From a virus, in IMG/VR virus record IMGVR_UViG_3300025644_000172, positions 1 to 31,315 of that record: a DNA stretch of 31,315 nucleotides. The stretch is one strand, 5' to 3'. The translations under genes were made by a program, and so were the position numbers. The notes beneath the pieces were generated by a model, which was given only the letters and a program-made list of their open reading frames with translations, had not been told where the DNA came from and searched no databases. Of this stretch, positions 1,955 to 26,405 are shown one piece after another (positions within the stretch are counted from its first letter, which is position 1; every line of letters begins with the position of its first letter).

Positions 1955-2445
1955 TTCTTTGGTAATTTAAGTTTCAATTTCGTTATCTGTTTAGGATCAA
2001 TTCCATATTTCTCACATACATATTTTATGTGTTCTCGTCCTTCAAGTGTGGCATATAGTATTTCTACGTAATCGGTTGCTTCTCTGATTGAACATTGATA
2101 ATCTACTTTAATCAAGTCTATTAACCACGATTCAAATTTTGAATCACCTTTACCCTTTACATATTTCAAGTAATACCTACCTTTTGGTATCAATCCAATG
2201 TATACCTTATATAATACCTCTGGATCTAATGCTTGTGTGTATGGTTGTAACTCTGATATTAGGTCTATCCACTCGTGACGCATTGATAAAAATCTATGTA
2301 TCATGTAATTGCTCCATGTTTTTTTCGATGCCTCAGTCAACGTATCCCAATAATTTGGGTCTTGTGTACTCGTTATCATTTTTATATGATCGAAGAGTGT
2401 TTTTGGTTTTACTACTTGTTCTTCGGATTGTTTCTTTTTAGCCAT
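1951..2445 (-). CDS. 62: Clamp-loader small subunit, gp62-like
   Basis: 164 aa against about 187 in T4 gp62. The central block VYIGLIPKGRYYLKYVKG followed by DYQCSIREATDYVEIL resembles the T4 gp62 region around NYLMAAVPRGKRYGKW and YQVNTNDAINY. In T4, one gp62 joins four gp44 ATPases to load the gp45 clamp. The gp44-like and gp45-like genes are both in this window, which supports the call. The lysine-rich C-terminus and the N-terminal MAKKKQSEEQ are probably flexible. A GIY-YIG endonuclease gene overlaps its start by 8 bp, so a homing gene has been placed directly against this replication gene. Similarity is judged by eye. Confidence 0.7.
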   Translation of the reverse strand: MAKKKQSEEQVVKPKTLFDHIKMITSTQDPNYWDTLTEASKKTWSNYMIHRFLSMRHEWIDLISELQPYTQALDPEVLYKVYIGLIPKGRYYLKYVKGKGDSKFESWLIDLIKVDYQCSIREATDYVEILYATLEGREHIKYVCEKYGIDPKQITKLKLKLPKK

Positions 2446-3028
2446 TATTATTTTTTTTTCTTGCTTCTCTCATTTTTGCTTTGGTTTCTTCTGAATGTTT
2501 CTTACCATAAAAAGAATTAGATTTTCCTTGTTGATTGTTACTCATTTTTGCTTTGGTTTCTTCTGAATGAGTTTTGTCTTTCCAATAATGTACATTATTA
2601 GTTAACCATTGTTTTATCGAATTTGATATTTGTAATTTTGTTTCCTCTGTATGATGTTTGTTATACATAGGATTCAATACACCGCTAAAATCTGGATGAT
2701 TTTCTTTTAATTTACGTTTAACTTCAGCTGAAAATTTTCTATTTCTTGCTCCCTCACCTCCATCTGTCATATTTACAAGATTTCCTTCACCTAAATCTTT
2801 TCTACCATATACCGATATAAGTTCAATTTCTCTTAATTTAGCTAATTCATAATCATCAAATTCATCATAAATTTCTACACTATACCCACACTTGCTTACA
2901 ACATTGTACCAATGTTTATTTCTATTGTGAGTTGAATATGCTCTCTTTTTAGTTTTGCCAATTCCAACATAAAAAATCTCATTAGTATCATTTCGCTTGT
3001 GAATGTAAACTATTGCCTTTTTTCTCAT
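2438..3028 (-). CDS. GIY-YIG homing endonuclease with NUMOD3 repeats
   Basis: 196 aa. The N-terminal GIY-YIG domain shows VYIHKRN...FYVGIGKTKKRAY (residues 8-30), then LREIELISVYG carrying the catalytic Glu and NMTDGGEGA. Then come NUMOD3-type DNA-binding repeats: NPMYNKHHTEETK, KTHSEETKAKMS, GKKHSEETKAKM. Such enzymes nick or cut intron-less or insert-less alleles of neighbouring genes. The gene abuts and overlaps the gp62 start, so the likely target is in the gp62/gp44 region. It belongs to a three-member cassette family with a conserved leader and an upstream overlapping MGRKKKY small ORF. Confidence 0.88.
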   Translation of the reverse strand: MRKKAIVYIHKRNDTNEIFYVGIGKTKKRAYSTHNRNKHWYNVVSKCGYSVEIYDEFDDYELAKLREIELISVYGRKDLGEGNLVNMTDGGEGARNRKFSAEVKRKLKENHPDFSGVLNPMYNKHHTEETKLQISNSIKQWLTNNVHYWKDKTHSEETKAKMSNNQQGKSNSFYGKKHSEETKAKMREARKKNNNG

Positions 3029-3146
3029 AATATTTCTCCATACGATGGGCGTTTATTTTCTCTTTATTCTTTTCATAATAAAGTCGATTCCACTCTCGTT
3101 GAGCCACTTTTAACTCTTCCTCAGAATATTTCTTCTTTCTTCCCAT
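2988..3146 (-). CDS. Small basic MGRKKKY-family protein (52 aa), overlapping the endonuclease
   Basis: It begins MGRKKKYSEEELKVAQREW and continues YYEKNKEKINAHRMEKYYEKK, a basic, charged, helical peptide. It overlaps the start of the GIY-YIG gene by about 40 bp in another frame. Near-identical ORFs precede two other endonucleases at 7087-7239 and 17124-17303. Conservation of the protein in three cassettes with two different nuclease types argues that it is translated. It may be a DNA-binding partner, or a translated leader coupling the endonuclease. No function is established. Confidence 0.65.
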   Translation of the reverse strand: MGRKKKYSEEELKVAQREWNRLYYEKNKEKINAHRMEKYYEKKGNSLHSQAK

Positions 3147-3190
3147 CTATATATATAAGTATAACACTATGATAAAAACACTATGATAAT
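3147..3190 (-). promoter_or_regulatory. Cassette leader with tandem 12-bp repeat
   Basis: On the plus strand ACACTATGATAA occurs at 3164-3175 and again at 3178-3189, a 14-bp period. Between it and the small ORF the minus strand reads TTATACTTATATATATAG, a block also found before the other cassettes. It is probably a cassette promoter with an operator-like repeat. Confidence 0.5.
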
Positions 3191-5322: not shown

Positions 5323-6405
5323 TTATATTAAGCCATGTGGTTTCGCTTCCACGATTCCTGCGTTTGTTATTTGTACATATTCGGGATTGAATTCGGCTAG
5401 ATTTCGTGCACCACCATATGATAATGCTGAACGTATTCCATCTACCAATCCATTGATAATAAATTTAACTCCACCTTTATATGGTATCATTGCTGACTCA
5501 CCCTCTACATTACTAACAATTCCACCATTATCTTGTTTTGCTTCAAGTGATGCTGAACCTCTGTATCGTTTGTATAACCCTTGTTTAGTTTCTATAACCA
5601 AGCCTGGTGATTCATCAGTACCAGCTAATAGTGAACCCACCATTACACAATCCGCTCCTAAAGCTAATGCCTTTGATATGTCACCACTATTACGTATACC
5701 ACCATCAGCTATTATCGGTACAGTTGCAACTTGGCTAATATTTATTAAACTCGTTACACTTGGTACACCAAATCCAGTCTGAATCCGTGTGTTACATAGT
5801 GCTCCATTTCCTACATTTATACGTAAACCATCCACACCCGCTTGTTCCAATTCTTCTGCCGCGTCGGCGGTAGCAATATTACCTGCTATAATATCAACCG
5901 TATCTTTTAAATTCAATTTACACCACCTAACCATGTCAATGACTTTTTGGTGGTGACCATGTGCCACATCAATTACAAGAATGTTTGCACCAGCTTCAAC
6001 TAAATGTTGTGCTCGTTTTCTATCACTTGTTCGAACACCAATAGCGGCCATTATAGGTGGTTGTTTAATTTCTGAATGCCAGTCATCATACATAAAACCC
6101 CAATCTTCTAATTCTCGTTCACCATCTTTGGTTTTGTATATCCTAGTGTATAGTTCACGTACCATTGTAATTTGATCTGATATGGTCATGAATCTATGTA
6201 TAACACCCACCCCGCCTAGTTTATATAACTTCCAAGCCATTTCTAAATCACATATAGTATCCATTGGTGAAGCAACTATCGGTATTATAATACCATATCT
6301 TCTACTTACCAATGTTCGTAATGAAACGTCTCTCCTACTTTTGATATTTGAAAATTCAGGTACTAACTGAATATCATCATATGCTAATGTTATTTCGTTT
6401 CTCAT
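5323..6405 (-). CDS. IMP dehydrogenase / GMP reductase family enzyme
   Basis: 360 aa TIM barrel with no CBS domains. Visible are ASPMDTI (45-51), GGVGVIHR (64-71), DVAHGHH (146-152), the catalytic loop [17 protein letters not shown] with Cys204, ADGGIR (233-238) and the phosphate-binding MVGSLLAGT. The flap region has [15 protein letters not shown] but lacks the Arg-Tyr-Phe of classical IMPDH. That makes GMP reductase (GMP to IMP) as likely as IMPDH (IMP to XMP). Either would adjust purine pools during replication. An EDxHD homing endonuclease gene overlaps its start by 4 bp. Confidence 0.9.
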
Positions 6406-7118
6406 TCTTCTATTATTATAAATTTACATTTCAGTAAATTCGTTATTTCCTGTTGTCTATTCATATCCTTTTTTATATTACTGGTATGGAACTTCTCATA
6501 ATATTCGATTACTATATTCTTTTCTTTACTATACCCATCTACGAAATAACCAAGTTCCTTAATATGATACTCACCGCCGTTTTCTGCGTGTTGTAAATCT
6601 GTTATACCAAGTTCTTTTGCTTTTGCTTCTATAATTGGTATTGATGATTTATTATAATTCGGGTAAACTTCAAATTTAGTTTTCCAATACTTAATACTCG
6701 TTAATCGTCTGTTCTTGCAATATTTAACATATTCATCATCATTCATATTCTCAAAATATGACTTCCTAGATTCACTCATATTCTTACGAGTTTTATCACT
6801 ATACACTCTACCGGTGAAAGACTCACTCATTCGTTTACGAGTTTCATCACTTACTATTTTCCCGGTTGCAGTCTCACTCATTTTTTTACGAGTTTCATCG
6901 GAACATCCTTGTAATTTACGTTTTGCCTTTATCTTCTCAATTGTTTCAGGTTTGTGTTTTTTATTATACATTGGATTATTCATACCAATACGTGCACATC
7001 TTCTACATTTACTACCAGTCTTAGTGGCACCCATCAAATTTTTCTTACTACTATATGATACACCACACCCACATTCAGGACATTTTCTAGTCCATTTCTT
7101 TTTTTCGTTTTTGATCAT
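6402..7118 (-). CDS. EDxHD-type homing endonuclease with zinc finger and NUMOD3 repeats
   Basis: 238 aa. The N-terminus holds a four-Cys finger (C13xxC16 and C38xxC41). NPMYNKKHKPETIEKI and three SDETRKKMSE-like NUMOD3 repeats (about residues 73-120) follow. The C-terminal catalytic part contains ENGGEYHIKELGYFVDGY and IVIEYYEKFHTSNIKKDMNRQQEI, matching the E...D...xH...D pattern of the Vsr-like EDxHD family defined by I-Bth0305I. Its last about 80 residues are nearly identical to those of the gene at 16478-17182. It overlaps the IMPDH-like gene start, a typical free-standing homing-gene position. Confidence 0.85.
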   Translation of the reverse strand: MIKNEKKKWTRKCPECGCGVSYSSKKNLMGATKTGSKCRRCARIGMNNPMYNKKHKPETIEKIKAKRKLQGCSDETRKKMSETATGKIVSDETRKRMSESFTGRVYSDKTRKNMSESRKSYFENMNDDEYVKYCKNRRLTSIKYWKTKFEVYPNYNKSSIPIIEAKAKELGITDLQHAENGGEYHIKELGYFVDGYSKEKNIVIEYYEKFHTSNIKKDMNRQQEITNLLKCKFIIIEE

Positions 7119-7239
7119 AGTATCTCTCCATACGATGGGTATTTAACTTTTCTTTGTTCTTTTCATACCAACGTTTCCAAGTAGCATTATTTGCTGCTTT
7201 CTTTTCTTCTATTGTTTGATATTTCTTCTTTCGTCCCAT
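7087..7239 (-). CDS. Small basic MGRKKKY-family protein (50 aa), overlapping the endonuclease
   Basis: It starts MGRKKKYQTIEEKKAANNA, then WKRWYEKNKEKLNTHRMERYY, and stops 32 bp inside the EDxHD gene in another frame. It is almost identical to the ORF at 17124-17303 (the AANNAxWKRWYEKNKEK block is shared) and related to that at 2988-3146. It is preceded by the conserved TTATACTTATATATAG leader. It looks like a conserved cassette component rather than a chance ORF. Confidence 0.65.
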   Translation of the reverse strand: MGRKKKYQTIEEKKAANNATWKRWYEKNKEKLNTHRMERYYDQKRKKEMD

Positions 7240-7285
7240 CTATATATAAGTATAACTATTTGATAAAAAGTATTTGATAATTAGT
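7240..7285 (-). promoter_or_regulatory. Cassette leader with tandem 10-bp repeat
   Basis: TATTTGATAA occurs on the plus strand at 7257-7266 and 7271-7280, again a 14-bp period, as in the leader at 3147-3190 but with a different repeat sequence. The block TTATACTTATATATAG (minus strand) separates it from the small ORF. Confidence 0.5.
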
Positions 7286-7303
7286 AATTTATAACGATTC
7301 TAA

Positions 7304-8938
7304 TTAAGGTTTCCGGAAAATAAATATCGGTTCGTACTTGCTCCAAGATCCATCATGGAATACTTTGTTTTTTACTCCTTCGGAGGCTGAATCTAATCCA
7401 ACCATACGTGTCATTTTCATTTTTAATTTTCCTTTATATTTACACCCAAGTTCAGTTAATATATCAATTGAATCTTGTTCCAACGGATAATACAAATCTG
7501 TTCCTATTTTGATGTCTGCTATGTTCCAAAGTATATACCTATCATGTTTCAAGTATTCGAATATAGTAACCAATGTTGGTTTTAAGAAATTATCTCTCCA
7601 ATTATCGTAATCTGAATATTCATCCCATGATTGACCTGTTCCTTTATCACCGTACCGTTCCCTATTAAAATAAGGTGGGCTTGTGAATGCTATATCCAAT
7701 GTTCCTTTGTATTTTTGAAACTCTGGATTGTGTTGTATTAACTCTGAACCATTATGAAATAATTCAAATGTATTTGAAGTTTTAGTAATTTCAAAGAATT
7801 TACCAAATGTATCTGGAAAATCATCTACACAATTATCATTGTAGAAATTAGCCATGTACTCATATCTTGATATACCAATACTTGGTATAAAGTTATCAGG
7901 GTTTGGATCAGTACCAATGTAATGAAATTTCTTACGTGAACTCATTGCACCGAGTATTCTACCACCCCAACCACTTGATGAATCATATATGTTTAATGGT
8001 TCACTTTGTTTAATATGTGATGTATATGTTTCATATAGATACTTTGCAGTTAATGCTGGGAAATTCACAGCAGGTTGTCCACAACTTAATCTAAACACAC
8101 TAAATATCTTCGGAAAAATCTGTGTTGATTTATCATACCAACGAATCTGATATGAGTATTTCGTAACATTACCCGATTGTGATTCCGATTCCGATTCTAA
8201 TTTATCAATATTAGATACTTGGTGTGATTTTAACCACCCATTTTCTAAACATTGTTTTATTTCTTCATATGTACAATATAGATTATTAAATTCCAAAAAC
8301 TGGTCATTAACTGTTCCATAATTTTCTAAGGTTGATTCCTTTACTTTAGATATTGATATATCATAGTTAGAATATTCACCTCTAAATACATTTCCATTGT
8401 GGATATCTTTAATCAACTCAAATCCAGTCTGTCCATTCCAAAATGGGTTTTCATCTGGTTTCGTAACAACCGAACGCGACCATGAATACATAGAATCTCG
8501 TTTAACTGCCCGTTTCATTATCCTAATGAACTTATCTTCCATATCAGGATCACCAAAATGGTCATATATTGAAATTCCATTATCAGTTGTTTTTCCACTT
8601 GATATTTTAGTTTTCAACATAGTAGGAAAAAACTGATTTACAACCGATGCATCTTTATTGAAATTCTGTATAATTCCCAACGAGTCGGTATCATCTGATA
8701 AATCTGTCTTTAAGAAATCACAACTGTTACCCTTTAGTTTTTTCAAAGAGGTTATAATATCATTTCGATCTCTACCAATAACGGGTGGTGTGGAATTAAC
8801 ATCCCATTGGTGAGTGATTTCCTTTCGTAGTAATCGTGCCCAATTCGTAAACTCGTCATCAGACATCTTTAATAATTGATAATATTCAATATTAGATTCT
8901 AATTCTTCAAATTTAGATCTCTCGTGGAAATAATTCAT
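7304..8938 (-). CDS. SPPYF-type DNA amino-methyltransferase, paralogue A (544 aa)
   Basis: The ATG at 8938 forms a TAATG overlap with the upstream stop, so I prefer it to one 45 bp further upstream. The N-terminal about 280 residues are of unknown fold. Then comes the shared methyltransferase core: NFPALTAKYLYETYT, DSSSGWGGRILGA (SAM-binding motif I), YIGTDPNPDNF, AFTSPPYFNRERYGD (catalytic motif IV, SPPY) and ILWNIADIKIG. It ends in EPIFIFRKP. The [DNS]PP[YF] motif indicates N6-adenine or N4-cytosine methylation. Paralogues lie at 17349 and 28753. It follows a DUF4338 gene and a glycosyltransferase gene, suggesting a DNA-modification cluster. Confidence 0.82.
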   Translation of the reverse strand: MNYFHERSKFEELESNIEYYQLLKMSDDEFTNWARLLRKEITHQWDVNSTPPVIGRDRNDIITSLKKLKGNSCDFLKTDLSDDTDSLGIIQNFNKDASVVNQFFPTMLKTKISSGKTTDNGISIYDHFGDPDMEDKFIRIMKRAVKRDSMYSWSRSVVTKPDENPFWNGQTGFELIKDIHNGNVFRGEYSNYDISISKVKESTLENYGTVNDQFLEFNNLYCTYEEIKQCLENGWLKSHQVSNIDKLESESESQSGNVTKYSYQIRWYDKSTQIFPKIFSVFRLSCGQPAVNFPALTAKYLYETYTSHIKQSEPLNIYDSSSGWGGRILGAMSSRKKFHYIGTDPNPDNFIPSIGISRYEYMANFYNDNCVDDFPDTFGKFFEITKTSNTFELFHNGSELIQHNPEFQKYKGTLDIAFTSPPYFNRERYGDKGTGQSWDEYSDYDNWRDNFLKPTLVTIFEYLKHDRYILWNIADIKIGTDLYYPLEQDSIDILTELGCKYKGKLKMKMTRMVGLDSASEGVKNKVFHDGSWSKYEPIFIFRKP

Positions 8939-10098
8939 TATCGTCCTACCTCTTTTAAATACCGTTTTTTCATTTCTTCCCAACTGATACCAATTGCATC
9001 AATATAATACAAATCCTCTGGTTTCAGTCTATTTTCATCATATAGTTTTTCGTATCGCCTGATAGCCTTAGGTTTCCACCACCTATTAATATAATCAACA
9101 CCCTCAGCAAACTTTTTCTTCATTACCAAATCTGATTCTTCAATCTCTGAACGTAGGAATTCATTACCATTATCATACATTTGAGCCAAATAAACACCAC
9201 GTTTGAATCCATGATGATATGTTTTTGCGCTCACACCAATATGTTTAAAAATACAATTTATAACATTCTGTTTGGGGCCCGTTCTACTAATGGCATCCTC
9301 AAATTGTTCAGGGTGATTTGTTTTCAACCAATGAGACCACGGGATATACACATCATCATCTGGTTTTGTTGCCGTTTGGCCTGTTGATTCACCAAGTGTT
9401 TTGAAATGTGGTAACCCATTATATTGAGAATGAACACCATATAATGATGTAGTTGTAACACCTATCAGAACATTATCATACTTTTGTTTCCAATAATTTC
9501 TGATTACGGGTGTTGTTGTCATTGCTGCTATTAACTTTCCACCGAGAAAATTAAATCCCAATGGTTGTGTACATACAATGGTCGAGGCAATTGTGGTATT
9601 ATTCAGTTTACCCTTTTCAAATTTATCTTCCTTTTTCCAACCGATATAATTATCACGTACCTTTATACTCGTTACATCAGATGCTAATGATATTTGGCCT
9701 AGTAACTTTCCACTAGTTCTATCAATAACATACACTTTTACGTTTCTACCTGGATTAGCTGACCAACTCATGGTGTGAATCATTTTTCGAATATGAGTCC
9801 ATTTCATCATTTCGTCTGAATTCTCTACGATTCTCACATATGGGTCTAACTCATTTATCTCACTAATGGTAAGTTCTTTGTTAGTTATATCGGTGGGTTT
9901 CCATTGCCAATCATAAAACCCAGCTATTGTAGATTTACGGCGTATCATACTAGGTTCTTGTAATTCAACCCATTTTTTGTATAATGTCTGTTCTTCTACC
10001 GACATGGAACTTAAATAGTCCATGTTCTCCAGCAATAGTTTTTTCTCTAATTCGAAATCGAATTTGCTTCTATCTATACCGATATCCCAAAACTTCAT
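8938..10098 (-). CDS. DUF4338 (DruA-like) protein
   Basis: 386 aa. The middle has SGKLLGQISLASD, RDNYIGW, then TIVCTQPLGFNFLGGKLIAAM, W...Y of RNYWKQKYDNVLIG and TTSLYGVHSQYNGLPHFK-LGESTGQ. This order matches the DUF4338 family, which includes DruA of the Druantia anti-phage system and many stand-alone phage proteins. The biochemical function is unknown. It is coupled to the downstream methyltransferase (TAATG) and starts 1 bp after the glycosyltransferase stop. As it occurs in a phage, it could serve in DNA modification, superinfection exclusion or counter-defence; those are inferences. Confidence 0.72.
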   Translation of the reverse strand: MKFWDIGIDRSKFDFELEKKLLLENMDYLSSMSVEEQTLYKKWVELQEPSMIRRKSTIAGFYDWQWKPTDITNKELTISEINELDPYVRIVENSDEMMKWTHIRKMIHTMSWSANPGRNVKVYVIDRTSGKLLGQISLASDVTSIKVRDNYIGWKKEDKFEKGKLNNTTIASTIVCTQPLGFNFLGGKLIAAMTTTPVIRNYWKQKYDNVLIGVTTTSLYGVHSQYNGLPHFKTLGESTGQTATKPDDDVYIPWSHWLKTNHPEQFEDAISRTGPKQNVINCIFKHIGVSAKTYHHGFKRGVYLAQMYDNGNEFLRSEIEESDLVMKKKFAEGVDYINRWWKPKAIRRYEKLYDENRLKPEDLYYIDAIGISWEEMKKRYLKEVGR

Positions 10099-12005: not shown

Positions 12006-12860
12006 TTAACCGAAACTGAAGAATTGTTCGGCTGCTTTTTGCTCGTTTACCACCTGTCCCCAGCCGAGAACGTTGTAAAAATCTTGTAATTTTTTGAGTA
12101 ATTCACGTTCAAATATCTTATCGTAATCAATATACGTTTTGATAAATTCAGTTATTTCATCAGGATCGTTGTATCCTGTAAACCCAACTGCGGCAACACC
12201 AAATGGATTGTTTTTCATATATGCCCATTTAATCTTATCAGTATCCTTAACAGGTGCATATTTATATGGTGTCTTAAAATGTTTCAACATATCATTATAT
12301 GTTATAGCGGCTTTAACGTGAGCAGGTGTTCCCTTTTTATATCTAAATAACGAACCATCACCAACCATATATTTTTTTAATCCTTTAATGGCTGAGTTTT
12401 TTGCTATCTCAGCTATATTAAGTTGATTCATGTTATGCTTGAAATCCATTATCAAATCACGTAACTCATTTTGTGTTTTACCACGTAATATATCAATGAG
12501 TACCGTTTTCATTAAGTTAGCAAATGAGGCTGGAAATGATGATCTAACCACATCTAAACCTTTTACATCTAGTTTATCAACTGGTACACCTTTGTCTAAA
12601 ATAATCCATTGAGCGTATCGTTTTTTAGCAATCCAAATTCCTGCCTTAGCAATATATTCCTTTTTAATCTCTAATCGGTGTTTATCCTTTGAAACATTAA
12701 ACACACTCGGTGCCAACATATCATAGAAATCATTTAGATAATCTTGCATTTCACCTGCAATGTCATCCACGAACTTAGCTATTGTTTCTTGGTCATTATT
12801 TTCCCAACCCGGTCTTCTATAACTTAACAATGGAACTGCACTAAAAAATACTGAATCCAT
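12006..12860 (-). CDS. 43B: DNA polymerase B, C-terminal fragment (gp43B-like), starts inside motif C
   Basis: 284 aa beginning MDSVFFSAVPLL. The first Asp is the second Asp of the catalytic DTDS motif C; the DT half is encoded by the preceding mini-ORF. Downstream are the KKRYA motif (KKRYAQWIILDKG), KGLDVVRSSFP and the thumb, ending in AAEQFFSFG, which resembles the clamp-binding tail of T4/RB69 gp43. The catalytic palm is thus divided between polypeptides unless the 6-nt TAAATG is bypassed. If translated separately, residue 2 is the metal-binding Asp. Split gene 43 (43A/43B) is known from Aeromonas phages 25 and 44RR. Confidence 0.92.
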   Translation of the reverse strand: MDSVFFSAVPLLSYRRPGWENNDQETIAKFVDDIAGEMQDYLNDFYDMLAPSVFNVSKDKHRLEIKKEYIAKAGIWIAKKRYAQWIILDKGVPVDKLDVKGLDVVRSSFPASFANLMKTVLIDILRGKTQNELRDLIMDFKHNMNQLNIAEIAKNSAIKGLKKYMVGDGSLFRYKKGTPAHVKAAITYNDMLKHFKTPYKYAPVKDTDKIKWAYMKNNPFGVAAVGFTGYNDPDEITEFIKTYIDYDKIFERELLKKLQDFYNVLGWGQVVNEQKAAEQFFSFG

Positions 12861-12863
12861 TTA
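12858..12863 (-). other. TAAATG stop-start hexamer splitting polymerase motif C
   Basis: Minus strand ACG-TAA-ATG-GAT-TCA. Deleting the six bases TAAATG joins IYIDT to DSVFF in frame, recreating the invariant DTDS motif. The same design (ACG-TGA-ATG) interrupts the methyltransferase at 30063-30068. Confidence 0.85.
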
Positions 12864-12944
12864 CGTGTCGATGTAGATATTGTGATCACTCGGGCCACTT
12901 GTATCTACATCGACTTCTATTTTTTGTATGTTTTTAATCTTCAT
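12861..12944 (-). CDS. 27-codon polymerase mini-fragment ending in ...IYIDT
   Basis: The ORF starts MKIKNIQKIEVDVDT, continues GPSDHNIYIDT and stops. Its C-terminus is clearly the native strand leading into motif C (YIDT|DS), so this is the polymerase segment that normally lies between the end of 43A (...TDELS) and 43B. Its start overlaps the stop of the small ORF at 12934 by 11 bp. It is in frame with 43B, separated only by TAAATG. Whether it is made as a 27-aa peptide, fused to 43B by bypass, or not translated alone is unknown. Confidence 0.75.
   Translation of the reverse strand: MKIKNIQKIEVDVDTSGPSDHNIYIDT
12867..12914 (-). repeat. Perfect 13-bp inverted repeat upstream of the polymerase hexamer
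   Basis: Arms at 12867-12879 and 12902-12914 (minus strand GTCGATGTAGATA ... TATCTACATCGAC), 22-nt loop. The 3' arm in the mRNA ends directly before the ACG codon that precedes TAAATG. The arms encode VDVDT and NIYID. In mRNA this would be a stable hairpin immediately 5' of the stop. Confidence 0.85.
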
Positions 12945-13122
12945 TATGTTTCTTTATTGTACTTATATGTTTAATTACATCACGAGCCATTTCCATGTGT
13001 TCATCGTATTCATCACAATCTTTGAAATTATCTCTGTTTGTAACTCTATCGGATACCCATTTTGATTTCATACCGTTGATGTAAATATCCCACGCCACGT
13101 CTTCTATCTTAGTAGTTTTCAT
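12934..13122 (-). CDS. Small hypothetical protein in the polymerase insertion (62 aa)
   Basis: It opens MKTTKIEDVAWDIYINGMKSKW and ends with KHISTIKKHNED. It contains a charged, helical-looking stretch (DECDEYDEH-like) in the middle. I do not recognise a family. It is the last of three small ORFs inserted in the polymerase, and its stop overlaps the start of the 27-codon polymerase fragment. No GIY-YIG, HNH or EDxHD motif is visible, so it is not an obvious endonuclease. Confidence 0.6.
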   Translation of the reverse strand: MKTTKIEDVAWDIYINGMKSKWVSDRVTNRDNFKDCDEYDEHMEMARDVIKHISTIKKHNED

Positions 13123-13124
13123 AT

Positions 13125-13385
13125 TTATGATTTTAATTCATCTAATTGTAATTCAAGATTTATTCGTTTCTTTTCTTCATTGAAGAACGGACATTTATCA
13201 GAACGTTTACACATAACACACCAATTACCAATTCCCCACTTTGTACCCTCTTCACAAGCGTAACTAAGGTGTTCATCTATATAAGCATCCATTAACTCTA
13301 ATACCGCCTCTCGTGGAAGATAATCGTATCCTTGCCATTTGAATAATCGGTATTTGTCATCGTACATATTTTCTTTTGATTTCAT
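13125..13385 (-). CDS. Cys-containing small protein in the polymerase insertion (86 aa)
   Basis: The sequence includes YLPREAVLELMDAYIDEHLSYACEEG and then WCVMCKRSDKCPFFNEEKKR, whose four cysteines (one in YACEEG, then CxxCxxxxxC) may bind zinc. No family is recognised. The start is 2 bp after the upstream small ORF and its stop is 2 bp before the next, so the three insertion ORFs form a tight mini-operon inside the split polymerase. Confidence 0.65.
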   Translation of the reverse strand: MKSKENMYDDKYRLFKWQGYDYLPREAVLELMDAYIDEHLSYACEEGTKWGIGNWCVMCKRSDKCPFFNEEKKRINLELQLDELKS

Positions 13386-13386
13386 A

Positions 13387-13590
13387 TCAATCTATTATTT
13401 CAAAGAATCCTGTTGCCTTGGTGTTGATTTCGTTAGCTGTAATCTCTCGTGATCGGTATTCGGTTACGCCTTTATCAAGTCTACCATATACATCACCATA
13501 TTGTATCCAAACCCAACGATACCAAACCCAACAAAATTTCATTATTCGGTATGTTTCGTTTTCTTGTTTTTCTATCTTAAATGTTTTCAT
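13387..13590 (-). CDS. Small hypothetical protein in the polymerase insertion (67 aa)
   Basis: It begins MKTFKIEKQENETYRIMKFC, followed by an aromatic run WVWYRWVWIQYGDVYGRLD and a C-terminal ANEINTKATGFFEIID. The ATG lies 2 bp after the 43A stop, so it is the first ORF translated after the polymerase N-terminal part. No known family. Its N-terminal MKTxKIE resembles the start of the 62-aa ORF at 13122 (MKTTKIED), perhaps a shared leader sequence. Confidence 0.6.
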   Translation of the reverse strand: MKTFKIEKQENETYRIMKFCWVWYRWVWIQYGDVYGRLDKGVTEYRSREITANEINTKATGFFEIID

Positions 13591-13592
13591 GT

Positions 13593-15536
13593 TTAACTTA
13601 ATTCGTCTGTCATTACTAAATCTTTTGCCATTATTTCGGCTAATTCACCATTTCGTACTACCTTTATGTATTCAGTTAAATTGTATTGTTTTGTTGTTCC
13701 ATCCTCTAACTGAACTTGGATTCGTTCTGGTGAACTCAATTCGTTATTATACTTGGTATTACCCATATCTGCGGTTGATTTGATAATCAACTGACCCGAT
13801 GAGGTTGTTGCACCTGCATTATCCACATCATAAAATCTCCAACCATACAACCCAAGTACACCATATAAACTATTTAATAGTATCTTTTGTACATGTTGAC
13901 GTTTATTGTAATAATTATATTTTTCGGTATCATTTGCTATACCGTATTTTTTCATTAAACCTTTATATTCAACTCGTTTATCAAACCAAATGTTCAATAT
14001 ACCTGGAATACAACCTACAATATCAGTACGATATACTACACCATTTGCTGAAATGGTCATTTCATTATCTGTAATGTATTTCTTGAAATCCGATTTTGGA
14101 ATAACATGGTCACCAACATGGATTTTGTAATCATCATCACTCAGATATTTCGTATAATCCCAATTATCAATTTTCAACACTTTGGTTTCAGGACTGATAT
14201 TTAATGTGATAATTATCATTGGATACAATGAAGTTAAATCCAAGTCATATATCCATTCATATCTACCTGTAATTGGGTCTTTTACATATGCACCCATTAA
14301 ATCAATAACAACACCCCACTCTTTATCCAATGTTTCTGGAAGTGGTTTTGCCGTTTCAAAATATCCCTGTTCACGGTTAATACCTATATATGGTATTAGT
14401 ATTTTACTTGATTTTGATTTATTTATCTTTAGTGTACCAGTATTTGGTATTTCAGCCAATGAACCCCTTACGTATATACGTGTTTCACCCGATATACCCT
14501 TTTTGATTATTAACTTAGTTTTTGGTTTTTTATTCGGAGCTACTATACCACGTTGTTTTAGATACGTTAATAATGCACCCTCTAAATATTTAGATGAATA
14601 TACTATATCCTCATATGGTACGTGGCCTGCGTGACAAATACCACGTGCTAATTCAATGAACTGTAATTTCTTCTCAAACTTAACAATTAATTTGGTATCT
14701 ACTAAACTATATTCGATAAACTTATCAAGATTAGTTCTAAATAATTCATCCAAGTTACCTTGATATTCAATTTTACCCTCACCAAGTTCTAATCTAGCAA
14801 CTGTATCTAATCTATAATTCGGTAATTCACCAAAAGTAAATTTCTTGTACATTACCATGTAGTCTAAACAACTTACACCAGCAATGAACCACCTATCTCG
14901 GTAATCTGAATAAAACATCTTACCAATTGGTGATAATCTATTAGCATAGGTGTCACCAAGTACACGTTTTAACCGATTATATATGTATGGTATATCAAAG
15001 TAATCAATATTCCAACCTGTGATTATATCTGGGTGTATCTCCTCATAAATTTCTAAGAATTTCATGAGTAATTCATGTTCGGTTTGAAATGGTAATACAA
15101 TGGCTTCCGATGTTGTTCGTTCTTGCATTGTACCATCCTTATTGAGTACCAATACCCAATATTGATCAGTTGCACTGTCATGTAAACTTATAGCAGTAAT
15201 TTCGTTTTCAGCTGTTTTAATATTAGGTGCACCGGTTTCGGTTTCAACCTCAATATCAAATGGCATTACTACAATACCCGTAGATACCTCATCACTATCG
15301 GTATACATATCTACCAATACACGAGTCGTTTCAGGTACATCAGATTCAAATAAACCTTCTTGTCCTTTTTTGAATTTATATATCTTACTTAATTTATCAC
15401 CATATAAGGATGTGTATTGACCGTTTTCAGCAGGTTCATACGCATACTTAGTGTATGGCGTTGTCAAATAACCCCGTTCGTCATCCCAGATGTGAACACG
15501 GTTACGTTCTCTTTGATAATAGATGTTTTTATAAAT
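13593..15536 (-). CDS. 43A: DNA polymerase B, N-terminal fragment (gp43A-like): exonuclease and most of the palm
   Basis: The first standard start is TTG at 15467 (624 aa). The same frame stays open upstream and encodes YKNIYYQRERNRVHIWDDERGY, which looks like genuine polymerase N-terminus. ATT at 15536 is the only sensible start, giving about 647 aa. Counting from the TTG: Exo I DIE at 71-73, Exo II NIDYFD near 153-158, Exo III YSLVD at 253-257, palm motif A DLTSLYP at 410-416 with catalytic Asp, motif B KILLNSLYG at 528-536. It ends ...MTDELS before motif C, which lies on later ORFs. It is the replicative polymerase with proofreading. Confidence 0.9.
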   Translation of the reverse strand: MYKNIYYQRERNRVHIWDDERGYLTTPYTKYAYEPAENGQYTSLYGDKLSKIYKFKKGQEGLFESDVPETTRVLVDMYTDSDEVSTGIVVMPFDIEVETETGAPNIKTAENEITAISLHDSATDQYWVLVLNKDGTMQERTTSEAIVLPFQTEHELLMKFLEIYEEIHPDIITGWNIDYFDIPYIYNRLKRVLGDTYANRLSPIGKMFYSDYRDRWFIAGVSCLDYMVMYKKFTFGELPNYRLDTVARLELGEGKIEYQGNLDELFRTNLDKFIEYSLVDTKLIVKFEKKLQFIELARGICHAGHVPYEDIVYSSKYLEGALLTYLKQRGIVAPNKKPKTKLIIKKGISGETRIYVRGSLAEIPNTGTLKINKSKSSKILIPYIGINREQGYFETAKPLPETLDKEWGVVIDLMGAYVKDPITGRYEWIYDLDLTSLYPMIIITLNISPETKVLKIDNWDYTKYLSDDDYKIHVGDHVIPKSDFKKYITDNEMTISANGVVYRTDIVGCIPGILNIWFDKRVEYKGLMKKYGIANDTEKYNYYNKRQHVQKILLNSLYGVLGLYGWRFYDVDNAGATTSSGQLIIKSTADMGNTKYNNELSSPERIQVQLEDGTTKQYNLTEYIKVVRNGELAEIMAKDLVMTDELS

Positions 15537-16477: not shown

Positions 16478-17182
16478 TTATTCTTTTATTATTATAAACT
16501 TACAATTTAGTAAATCTGTTATTTCTTGCTGTCTTCGTAAATCTCGTTCCTCTTGTCTACCGTGGTGTTTTTCGTAATATTCAATTACTGTGTTTTTCTC
16601 TTTACTGTAACCATCTACCCAATATCCAAGTTCTTTGATGTAAAATTCACCACCGTTTTCTGCGTGTTGTAAATCAGTTATTCCAAGTTCTGTTGCTTTT
16701 TGTTCTATAATTGGTATTGAGTTTGAATTATATAATGGATGTATCTGTCCATGTAATTTAGAACGTTGTTCAATCATAGCAATTCGTAATTTCTTCCTTA
16801 CGGCCGGTCTTTTACTTGGATTGTTATCACCTTTTAATTTTCCATTTAGTTTCATAGTTTTTCTAAACTTCTCAATGGCCTCCTGACTACGCACTTGTAC
16901 ACCTTTTTTACCTTTATTCCATGGCACATAATCTTTTTTAGCATCTCTCATTTTCTGTCTAGTATCTTCCGATGGTGTCCATCCAGTTGTATATGTGTTT
17001 CCTATCTTTGATAATGATATCTTTCGTTTTGCTTCATCTGTATGTGTTCTTCCTGTATTAGTACATGACTGACAGTTTGTCTCAATTTGATTTGCTCGTT
17101 TCCAATTTTTTTTACGGGTGTAGTTAATCGTTTTTCCGCAACTTGGACAATTTCTCTTCCATTTCTTTGATTCGTTTTTCAT
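16478..17182 (-). CDS. EDxHD-type homing endonuclease with zinc finger and NUMOD3-like repeats
   Basis: 234 aa paralogue of the gene at 6402-7118. The N-terminal four-Cys finger is C12xxC15 and C37xxC40. TDEAKRKISLSKIG and PSEDTRQKMRDAK are NUMOD3-like repeats. The C-terminal ENGGEFYIKELGYWVDGY and TVIEYYEKHHGRQEERDLRRQQEI show the E, D, H and D catalytic pattern of Vsr-like EDxHD enzymes. The middle DNA-binding part differs strongly from its paralogue while the catalytic end is nearly identical, as expected if the two recognise different sites. It lies just upstream of the promoter for the polymerase run. Confidence 0.85.
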   Translation of the reverse strand: MKNESKKWKRNCPSCGKTINYTRKKNWKRANQIETNCQSCTNTGRTHTDEAKRKISLSKIGNTYTTGWTPSEDTRQKMRDAKKDYVPWNKGKKGVQVRSQEAIEKFRKTMKLNGKLKGDNNPSKRPAVRKKLRIAMIEQRSKLHGQIHPLYNSNSIPIIEQKATELGITDLQHAENGGEFYIKELGYWVDGYSKEKNTVIEYYEKHHGRQEERDLRRQQEITDLLNCKFIIIKE

Positions 17183-25691: not shown

Positions 25692-26405
25692 CTATGTTAC
25701 CTCACAAAATTTAAATGTCCATTCTTTGTATGGGCCTCTAACGTAATGTGTATTATTTTTACAATGTTCTCTCACCCGTTGTGGTGCAACCCCAAGTTTA
25801 TTAGAAACTTCAACGGCTGATTCGTAAACTGTACTTGTTCCTTCTAAATCAATAACCTCAATACTCCCCAACCATCTACCATTGTTTGATCCTTTTTTAC
25901 AATCACTCCAAATTTTTAATTTATCGGGGGTGTTTATAGCCACCTTTATACTTTTAGATAATTTATCACGGGCAATTGGATCACTCAATCTATTTTTTAC
26001 TAATTTACTCATATTTTGTTTATAGTCATCACTCTGTACTATTCGTAGATGTTTTGTTCGTGTAATTGAGTCATTCATTGGATTATTATTATCAATGTTA
26101 CGTCTGTGTAATTCACGTGTTAATTCTCTATTTGGATTATGAGTAAATGTGTCACCACCCTCGCCACCATTAGCTATATTGTAACAATCTGAATTTCGTG
26201 ATTTATTAATCCAATGAATTTCTCGATTATCTATATTGGATTCATTACAAATTTCTAATATTTCTTTTTTAAAATTTTCAATACCATATTTTAATATTGA
26301 TTGTTTTAATAATTTACCCGAACCCATGTAGTTTGGATTATTGTATTTATCCTTACCTACATAAAATCTACCGTTTACTAAATTAGTTGTTTTATATATT
26401 ATCAT
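25692..26405 (-). CDS. GIY-YIG endonuclease with NUMOD1-like C-terminus
   Basis: 237 aa. The GIY-YIG domain has IIYKTTNLVNGRFYVGKDKY (residues 2-21), NPNYMGSG, then EIHWINKSRNSDCYNIANGGEGG with the catalytic Glu. The C-terminal EVIDLEGTSTVYESAVEVSNKLGVAPQRVREHCKN is the NUMOD1-type DNA-binding helix-turn-helix seen in SegA-like phage endonucleases. Unusually for this window it has a strong Shine-Dalgarno-like AAAGGAGGTGA directly before the ATG. It follows the ribonucleotide reductase gene, a known target of homing endonucleases, although that gene is intact here. Confidence 0.88.
   Translation of the reverse strand: MIIYKTTNLVNGRFYVGKDKYNNPNYMGSGKLLKQSILKYGIENFKKEILEICNESNIDNREIHWINKSRNSDCYNIANGGEGGDTFTHNPNRELTRELHRRNIDNNNPMNDSITRTKHLRIVQSDDYKQNMSKLVKNRLSDPIARDKLSKSIKVAINTPDKLKIWSDCKKGSNNGRWLGSIEVIDLEGTSTVYESAVEVSNKLGVAPQRVREHCKNNTHYVRGPYKEWTFKFCEVT

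What the first reader, a model, noticed from the sequence alone, without database searches (positions are those of the whole stretch)
12006..15536. Replicative DNA polymerase in three coding pieces, broken within catalytic motif C
Seen: exonuclease, motif A and motif B on one ORF, a 27-codon ORF ending YIDT, then an ORF starting MDS with the rest of the palm and thumb. A known split gene 43 exists in Aeromonas phages 44RR and 25 (43A/43B with an intercistronic sequence and a homing gene). I do not know of a case with the two motif C aspartates on different ORFs. No second polymerase is seen in the window, so this gene presumably must work.
Basis: partly seen in the sequence, partly recalled or inferred. 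Interest (0 to 1): 0.85.

Follow-up and report, generated by a model that had tools for sequence, protein, structure and literature searches.

The report
Phage DNA polymerase split in three
A phage's DNA-copying enzyme is encoded in three pieces, one cut lying inside its catalytic centre; three other phage lineages have the same cut beneath a conserved RNA hairpin, so this looks like an evolved way of making a working enzyme from fragments rather than a broken gene.

Summary
A T4-type family B polymerase is encoded as 43A, a 27-codon mini-ORF ending YIDT, and 43B starting MDS.

Two different interruptions are present. (1) 43A and 43B separate in a variable loop just before motif C. Each side carries non-polymerase sequence. 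The 47-residue tail on 43A matches the second half of a split-intein N-fragment (0-1 of 5000 shuffles score as high), but the splicing residues are missing. A related phage has a Vsr/EDxHD-type endonuclease at this junction. (2) A stop directly follows the motif C threonine. The same break occurs in three other contigs (L146, L216, L219; L146 43B is 61% identical to the window's).

All four stop alleles carry a hairpin whose 3' arm is the NIYID codons (z -5.2 to -5.9; 96% paired; four compensatory changes). Alleles without the stop lack it. Eight larger relatives have one PolB and no convincing PolA.

Best reading: a working split polymerase docked through non-splicing intein remnants, with 43B translation coupled to the mini-ORF by the hairpin. 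The main rival is ribosome hopping over the stop, as in T4 gene 60. Close precedents exist (Aes123-type motif C split inteins, Aeh1 NrdA, phage 25 43A/43B), so this is a new variant of a known kind.

The parts
13593..15536 (-). 43A: exonuclease, motif A and motif B part of a T4-type family B polymerase, plus C-terminal tail; start ATT at 15536 (TTG at 15467 as alternative)
   Evidence: Pfam DNA_pol_B_exo1 and DNA_pol_B; alignment with intact relatives; start comparison
13596..13736 (-). 47-codon tail SSPERIQVQLEDGTTKQYNLTEYIKVVRNGELAEIMAKDLVMTDELS, matching the second half (block B, 'N2') of split-intein N-fragments; the catalytic DH of T-x-D-H and all of block A are absent
   Evidence: HMM of 10 phage PolB-intein segments: 12.1 bits, 0-1 of 5000 shuffles reach it; best of 239 window ORFs, 7.2 versus 2.0 bits; dN/dS 0.18 against L001, Fisher p 0.001
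12861..12944 (-). 27-codon mini-ORF MKIKNIQKIEVDVDT-SGPSDHNIYIDT: 15-residue non-polymerase head plus the strand leading into motif C
   Evidence: Heads of the same kind fused to 43B in L001, L002, L024, L114; separate mini-ORFs in L146, L216, L219
12867..12914 (-). hairpin: 13-bp stem (arms 12902-12914 and 12867-12879), 22-nt loop; its 3' arm is the IYID codons
   Evidence: z -5.2; only perfect non-overlapping inverted repeat of 12 or more in the window; conserved with compensatory changes in 4 alleles
12858..12863 (-). 6-base insertion TAA ATG between the codons for T and D of motif C: stop of the mini-ORF and start of 43B
   Evidence: absent from 169 loci with an intact motif; counterparts TAACC (L146), TGACA (L219), 36-nt TTC TAA...TAC (L216)
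12006..12860 (-). 43B: MDSVFF..., rest of palm and thumb
   Evidence: Pfam DNA_pol_B; dN/dS 0.076 against L001
13387..13590 (-). 67-aa ORF between 43A and the mini-ORF; frame not kept in L001
   Evidence: no family
13125..13385 (-). 86-aa ORF, kept in L001 (dN/dS 0.13)
12934..13122 (-). 62-aa ORF overlapping the start of the mini-ORF; L001 has an endonuclease remnant here

Best explanation
A working split replicative polymerase produced by mobile-element activity, with two separate joints. Joint 1 (a true chain break in a tolerant loop before motif C): 43A and the downstream piece carry the inner edges of a split intein. The tail is the end of the N-fragment; the 15-residue head stands where the C-fragment would begin. 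These no longer splice and most likely act as a docking pair. Joint 2 (motif C): a stop follows the threonine codon under a hairpin formed by the mini-ORF itself. Ribosomes translating the mini-ORF open the hairpin, stop at UAA and restart on the adjacent AUG, so the 27-mer and 43B are made together and 43B alone is not. The palm is then completed by three chains: 43A, the 27-mer (first motif C aspartate) and 43B (second aspartate at residue 2). Shown: the sequence anatomy, the intein match of the tail, the hairpin and its conservation, recurrence in four lineages, purifying selection. Inferred: docking, translational coupling, restart, polymerase activity.
For: Stop at the same motif C position in window, L146, L216, L219. 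Hairpin in all four (z -5.2 to -5.9), absent in stop-less L001, L002, L024, L114 (z -1.3 to +1.0); 96% of cells paired, 4 compensatory pairs, slid registers 17-48%; not found elsewhere in about 1 Mb of related loci above the weak antisense and L114 hits. Well placed in-frame AUG in window and L216; CUG overlapping UGA in L219. Tail matches the intein N2 profile in window, L001, L219, L216. Ancestor-like trans-splicing inteins with a Vsr- or Hef-like nuclease sit at motif C in Aes144 and, by the same layout, in PTm1 and PA5oct. dN/dS: 43B 0.076, 43A 0.14, tail 0.18. One PolB and no PolA match over cut-off in 8 larger relatives.
Against: L146 has no usable start codon before its DSVFF (only GUA in frame), so restart would lose the catalytic aspartate there. 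A chain end inside the catalytic turn D-T/D puts a free carboxylate and an extra Met beside the metal site, an unlikely place for a tolerated break. 43A lacks an ATG. The head is not significantly intein-like on its own (shuffle fractions 0.02 to 0.5). The hairpin covaries over only four sequences, which may share ancestry. dN/dS was measured against L001, which has no stop, so it does not prove function after the stop arose.
Confidence: 0.42

Rival explanations
1. Programmed translational bypass. The ribosome takes off from the Thr codon, skips the stop and lands on the triplet just before GAY, restoring IYIDT-DSVFF exactly: window ACG to AUG (6 nt), L146 ACG to ACC (5 nt), L219 ACC to ACA (5 nt). 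The upstream hairpin serves as the motor, as proposed for the 5' stem-loop of T4 gene 60. The polymerase would then be two chains, like L001/L002/L024. The insertion would protect motif C from the homing nucleases that target it.
For: Stop immediately 3' of the last codon in all four; hairpin tied to the stop; out-of-frame continuation without a start codon in L146 and only CUG in L219; downstream DSVFF perfectly kept. The motif C turn is where removable elements (inteins) sit. The T4 gene 60 insert is linked to a homing nuclease and may protect against cleavage; imperfect take-off/landing matches occur in Magnusiomyces byps (PMC5009743).
Against: Take-off and landing codons match at only two of three positions; the window landing codon is AUG. 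L216 gives no clean hop (take-off UUC, landing UAC would add a Phe). In-frame AUGs in window and L216 are better explained by restart. The T-D-S codons before GAY are expected anyway from motif conservation.
Confidence: 0.3
2. Inactivated gene: the stop, the ATT start and the indels are scars, for example error-prone repair of nuclease cuts at motif C, and the phage relies on another polymerase.
For: Two unusual features in one gene (ATT start; motif C stop). Recurrent indels at one point could be repair scars at a nuclease target. The window is a fragment of the genome.
Against: Scars would not bring a hairpin with compensatory changes. All catalytic motifs are intact and dN/dS is low; window-lineage 43B has no excess of amino-acid changes (3 versus 6 in L001). 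L216 and L219 keep the arrangement without any nuclease between. Relatives have no second polymerase.
Confidence: 0.13
3. The pieces are rejoined covalently by protein trans-splicing (a functional split intein as in Aes123).
For: Tail resembles the intein N-fragment; closely comparable functional split inteins sit at motif C of other phages.
Against: No block A or conserved Cys/Ser at the start of the tail, the T-x-D-H histidine is missing, and no HN-Ser/Thr/Cys junction on the head side; no intein profile match in NCBIfam or Pfam.
Confidence: 0.03
4. A self-splicing intron or stop-codon reassignment removes the breaks.
For: Phage polymerase genes can carry introns; the intervening region is about 650 nt.
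Against: No Rfam match in the region even at E 1. UAA ends 43A and 43B themselves, so it is a stop here; readthrough would add two residues in the catalytic turn and cannot serve the out-of-frame L146 and L219.
Confidence: 0.02

Closest known systems
Aes123/Aes144-type split gene 43 of Aeromonas salmonicida phages (gp43A, gp43B1 + N-intein, Vsr-like nuclease, C-intein + gp43B2; JN377900)
   Same: Family B phage polymerase in three polypeptides, broken at motif C, Vsr-like nuclease between pieces; the 43A tail matches its intein N-fragment end
   Different: There the intein is complete and trans-splices (PMC11923092) and sits after the second aspartate (YIDTD/S). Here the splicing residues are gone, the chain break lies in the loop before motif C, and a separate stop with hairpin splits the two aspartates
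Split gene 43 (43A/43B) of Aeromonas phages 44RR and 25
   Same: Polymerase in separate genes; 43A and 43B of phage 25 co-purify and are active when overexpressed (PMC2988022)
   Different: 44RR has an untranslated intercistronic sequence and phage 25 a seg-like nuclease; no motif C break is described there
Aeh1 NrdA-a/NrdA-b split by mobE
   Same: Host enzyme fragmented by a homing nuclease and functional as a non-covalent assembly; [quoted passage not shown]
   Different: Ribonucleotide reductase, HNH nuclease; its tail does not match the intein N2 profile (1.2 bits, 9% of shuffles); no internal stop or hairpin described
T4 gene 60 / gene 39 with mobA and the 50-nt bypass
   Same: Split essential enzyme, homing-nuclease link, stop directly after the last codon, upstream stem-loop (PMC5009743, PMC11194080)
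   Different: 50-nt gap, matched GGA codons, nascent-peptide signal; here 5-6 nt (36 nt in L216) and imperfect matches, with no test of hopping

Membership tests
T4-type family B DNA polymerase (gp43) | Exonuclease domain and polymerase motifs A, B, C with catalytic aspartates | tested here: met
   Pfam hits over cut-off on 43A and 43B; motifs conserved in the alignment; motif C completed only across the break
Functional split intein | Block A with nucleophile, T-x-x-H of block B, C-terminal HN + Ser/Thr/Cys | tested here: not met
   Tail starts after block A; window and L001 tails have TEY-I in place of T-x-D-H; head has no HN junction; no intein profile hit
Split-intein-derived N-fragment remnant | Sequence match to the second half of the N-fragment beyond chance | tested here: met
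   12.1, 13.4, 9.6 and 8.3 bits; 0-4 of 5000 shuffles reach them; best of 239 window ORFs
Split-intein-derived C-fragment remnant (the head) | Sequence match to the start of the C-fragment beyond chance | tested here: inconclusive
   Shuffle fractions 0.12 (window), 0.02 (L001), 0.10 (L002), 0.51 (L024)
Fractured gene with Vsr/EDxHD homing nuclease | Nuclease gene of that family between the gene pieces | tested here: not met
   None in the window; present in L001, whose nuclease is distantly similar to Vsr nucleases of Aeromonas phages, and a related C-terminus stands before the head in L114 and L146
Mobile-element-split enzyme assembled non-covalently (Aeh1 NrdA kind) | Fragments associate and are active without ligation | not testable with these tools
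   Needs protein work; purifying selection on the tail is compatible
Programmed translational bypass (T4 gene 60 kind) | Take-off codon followed by stop, with stimulatory hairpin | tested here: met
   Four alleles
[quoted passage not shown]
   Two of three positions match in L146, L219, window; L216 does not fit
Programmed translational bypass (T4 gene 60 kind) | A single product joined across the gap | not testable with these tools
   Needs translation assay or mass spectrometry

The most novel reading that the evidence does not exclude
A conserved hairpin-stop module placed at the catalytic turn of motif C in four phage lineages is crossed by ribosome hopping of 5-6 nt, hiding an inserted stop from the protein while making the gene unrecognisable to the homing nucleases that target motif C. 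It would be a second phage system of the T4 gene 60 kind, in the replicative polymerase itself.
Probability: 0.3. Interest if true: 0.9.

Novelty: new variant of a known kind. Interest (0 to 1): 0.74.

Why it matters
If the three-chain reading holds, a replicative polymerase works with its two motif C aspartates on different polypeptides, which tests how continuous an active site must be. If the hopping reading holds, it is a new natural case of ribosome bypass. Either way it shows docking parts kept from a split intein after splicing was lost, a step between a selfish element and a multi-subunit enzyme, and it makes the origin of such docking domains testable. A stop-hairpin module found four times at one catalytic turn also gives gene finders and polymerase surveys a pattern that would otherwise be discarded as a pseudogene.

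Tried and rejected
Intron: no Rfam match. Reassigned UAA: rejected, UAA ends 43A and 43B. Trans-splicing: rejected on missing residues and profiles. Assembly error: unlikely. Tail or tail+head against PDB by sequence, phage records and GTDB genomes: no meaningful match. Structure prediction of 43A with a 14-sequence alignment failed (mean pLDDT 43) and was not used. L132 appears to carry the head-43B start behind unrelated genes, but at the very end of a contig whose other end holds a different polymerase segment, so it was set aside. Endonuclease-based search found only the L001 group. A hairpin model searched over about 1 Mb of loci found no further copies in other genes. Quasipalindrome mutation alone was considered for the window hairpin and dropped when the same hairpin with different bases appeared in three other lineages. 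Chance was also weighed for the pairing of in-frame AUG with the stop in window and L216; this favours restart but was not quantified with a formal test.
Full report
CHECK. All three pieces are on the minus strand in the order 43A (13593-15536), 27-codon mini-ORF (12861-12944), 43B (12006-12860). The motif C junction reads ATC TAC ATC GAC ACG TAA ATG GAT TCA. The window is a 31,315-base virus record with two DNA_pol_B matches, one on 43A and one on 43B.

WHERE THE POLYMERASE ENDS. Comparing the pieces with 80 related IMG/VR loci shows that in nearly all relatives the gene is intact and reads KYNKELGTPDADSNIYIDTDSVFFSA. In the window 43A leaves this sequence at KYNNEL and continues with 47 other residues. 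The mini-ORF begins with 15 other residues and then joins at SGPSDHNIYIDT. So the chain break between 43A and the rest is in the variable loop before motif C, not in motif C. In L001, L002, L024 and L114 a similar head is fused in frame to NIYIDTDSVFF with no stop. L001 carries the same 43A tail (85% identical over a 55-residue stretch that includes 7 polymerase residues), a complete 339-codon nuclease, and a leftover copy of the window's head preceded by the C-terminus of an older nuclease. In L001, L114 and L146 nuclease sequence stands directly before the head, which suggests that head and nuclease travel together (inference).

WHAT THE TAIL IS. An HMM built from ten phage inteins (end of N-fragment, taken from PolB loci fetched) gives the window tail 12.1 bits and the L001 tail 13.4 bits; 0-1 and 0 of 5000 shuffles reach these scores. 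Among 239 window ORFs of 40 or more residues, 43A is first with 7.2 bits, the next 2.0. Tails of two further split genes (L219, L216) score 9.6 and 8.3 bits, reached by 1 and 4 of 5000 shuffles. The catalytic part of the intein (block A, and the DH of T-x-D-H in window and L001) is missing. The head is only weakly intein-like. PMC11923092 describes N-fragment segments N1 and N2 and the disordered, charge-assisted association of split-intein halves; the tail corresponds to N2. That tail and head still bind each other is inference. The tail is under purifying selection between window and L001 (dN/dS 0.18; Fisher p 0.001).

THE MOTIF C STOP IS RECURRENT. A search for NIYIDT followed by TAA or TAG found, besides the window's own strain (L086), one more polymerase: L146. 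A wider search gave L216 and L219. L146: mini-ORF MIVKSIKTKNVDAVVDGRILDHNIYIDT, then ACG TAACC GAT. L219: 43A with tail, 18 nt, MKIKKIVDVGGDRKYDSNIYIDT, then ACC TGACA GAC. L216: 43A with tail, 13 nt, MKITKITRGNISIDERGQCDSNIYIDF, stop, a second hairpin, ATG TAC ACA GAT. L146 43B is 61% identical to the window's. L216 and L219 have no nuclease between the pieces (for coordinates), so the arrangement is kept without a selfish gene present.

THE HAIRPIN. In all four stop alleles the mini-ORF folds into a hairpin ending at or within 3 nt of the stop, its 3' arm being the NIYID codons (z -5.2, -5.9, -5.2, -5.4). Stop-less alleles give z -0.9, +1.0, +1.0 and -1.3. On the four-sequence alignment 96% of cells pair, four pairs change on both sides, and slid registers pair 17-48%. 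A covariance model of it found no other copies in about 1 Mb of related loci apart from weak antisense matches and a weak match (E 0.15) to stop-less L114 at the same place. The pattern stop-with-hairpin versus no-stop-without-hairpin is 4 to 4.

FUNCTION. 43B dN/dS against L001 is 0.076, first part of 43A 0.14; L001 itself has no stop, so this measures the pair and not the time since the stop arose. Eight relatives of 95-271 kb have a single intact PolB, and none has a PolA match over the cut-off (one match of E 4.7e-4 below cut-off in one of them). These facts argue that the gene is needed and works, but the window's full genome is not available.

MECHANISM. Two readings remain. Restart: window and L216 have an in-frame AUG just before (T)DS, L219 has CUG overlapping the UGA, but L146 has no start codon. 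Hopping: L146, L219 and window would restore IYIDTDSVFF exactly by a 5, 5 and 6 nt hop from a Thr codon, but codon matches are partial and L216 does not fit. T4 gene 60 has a stop after the take-off codon and a 5' stem-loop thought to act as motor; its insert is linked to a homing nuclease and may have protected against cleavage (PMC5009743; PMC11194080). On sequence evidence restart is somewhat better; on structural grounds (a chain end in the catalytic turn) hopping is. I put 0.42 on restart with three chains and 0.30 on hopping.

KNOWN RELATIVES. Aes144 and its kin have gp43A, gp43B1 with N-intein, a Vsr-like nuclease and C-intein with gp43B2; the sequence shows the intein after YIDTD and before S. 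Similar motif C inteins occur in phages of Campylobacter, Vibrio, Pseudomonas, Tenacibaculum and others. Split 43A/43B of phage 25 co-purify and are active (PMC2988022). Aeh1 NrdA works in two pieces (PMC2988022, PMC3267527). From memory only, not checked: the archaeon Nanoarchaeum equitans has a family B polymerase split within an intein. So a polymerase split at motif C, and fragments held by mobile-element parts, are both known; the non-splicing intein remnant on a polymerase together with a conserved hairpin-stop between the two motif C aspartates I did not find described in the library searched.

Noticed in passing
window 14337-14516 (minus), 43A residues about 341-400: A roughly 52-residue insertion (TKLIIKKGISGETRIYVRGSLAEIPNTGTLKINKSKSSKILIPYIGINREQGYFETAKPLPE...) between NIVAPNK and GAYVK, shared with L001 and absent from 11 intact relatives; L216 has a similar stretch at the same place.
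   Followed up: partly
L001 2979-3800: A further split of 43A between motifs A and B by an HNH/endonuclease VII-like gene, again with an added tail (SVKEQKVGKIIYDNDTK) and head (MIKIELYNKILEFDNRESMLEHLTRYELKLNDNGDIIK) that do not match the intein profile.
   Followed up: partly
L216 829-3852: 43A of L216 also holds what looks like a complete cis intein in the exonuclease domain (TGWNC...STHNCDNFDTP).
   Followed up: no
window 15534-15536: ATT where relatives have an ATG or TTG start for 43A.
   Followed up: partly
window 2438-3028, 6402-7118, 16478-17182, 25692-26405: Several NUMOD3 and GIY-YIG type homing-nuclease-like genes, and short repeated stretches shared between gene ends (7078-7320, 6378-6658, 3021-3178).
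   Followed up: no
window 8938-10098: A DruA-like protein (Pfam DruA, E 8.6e-24), known from the Druantia defence system, encoded in a phage beside its replication genes.
   Followed up: no
L177 upstream of 4001: Motif C intact, but the upstream reading frame is shifted compared with relatives; could be a sequencing slip or another recoding site.
   Followed up: no
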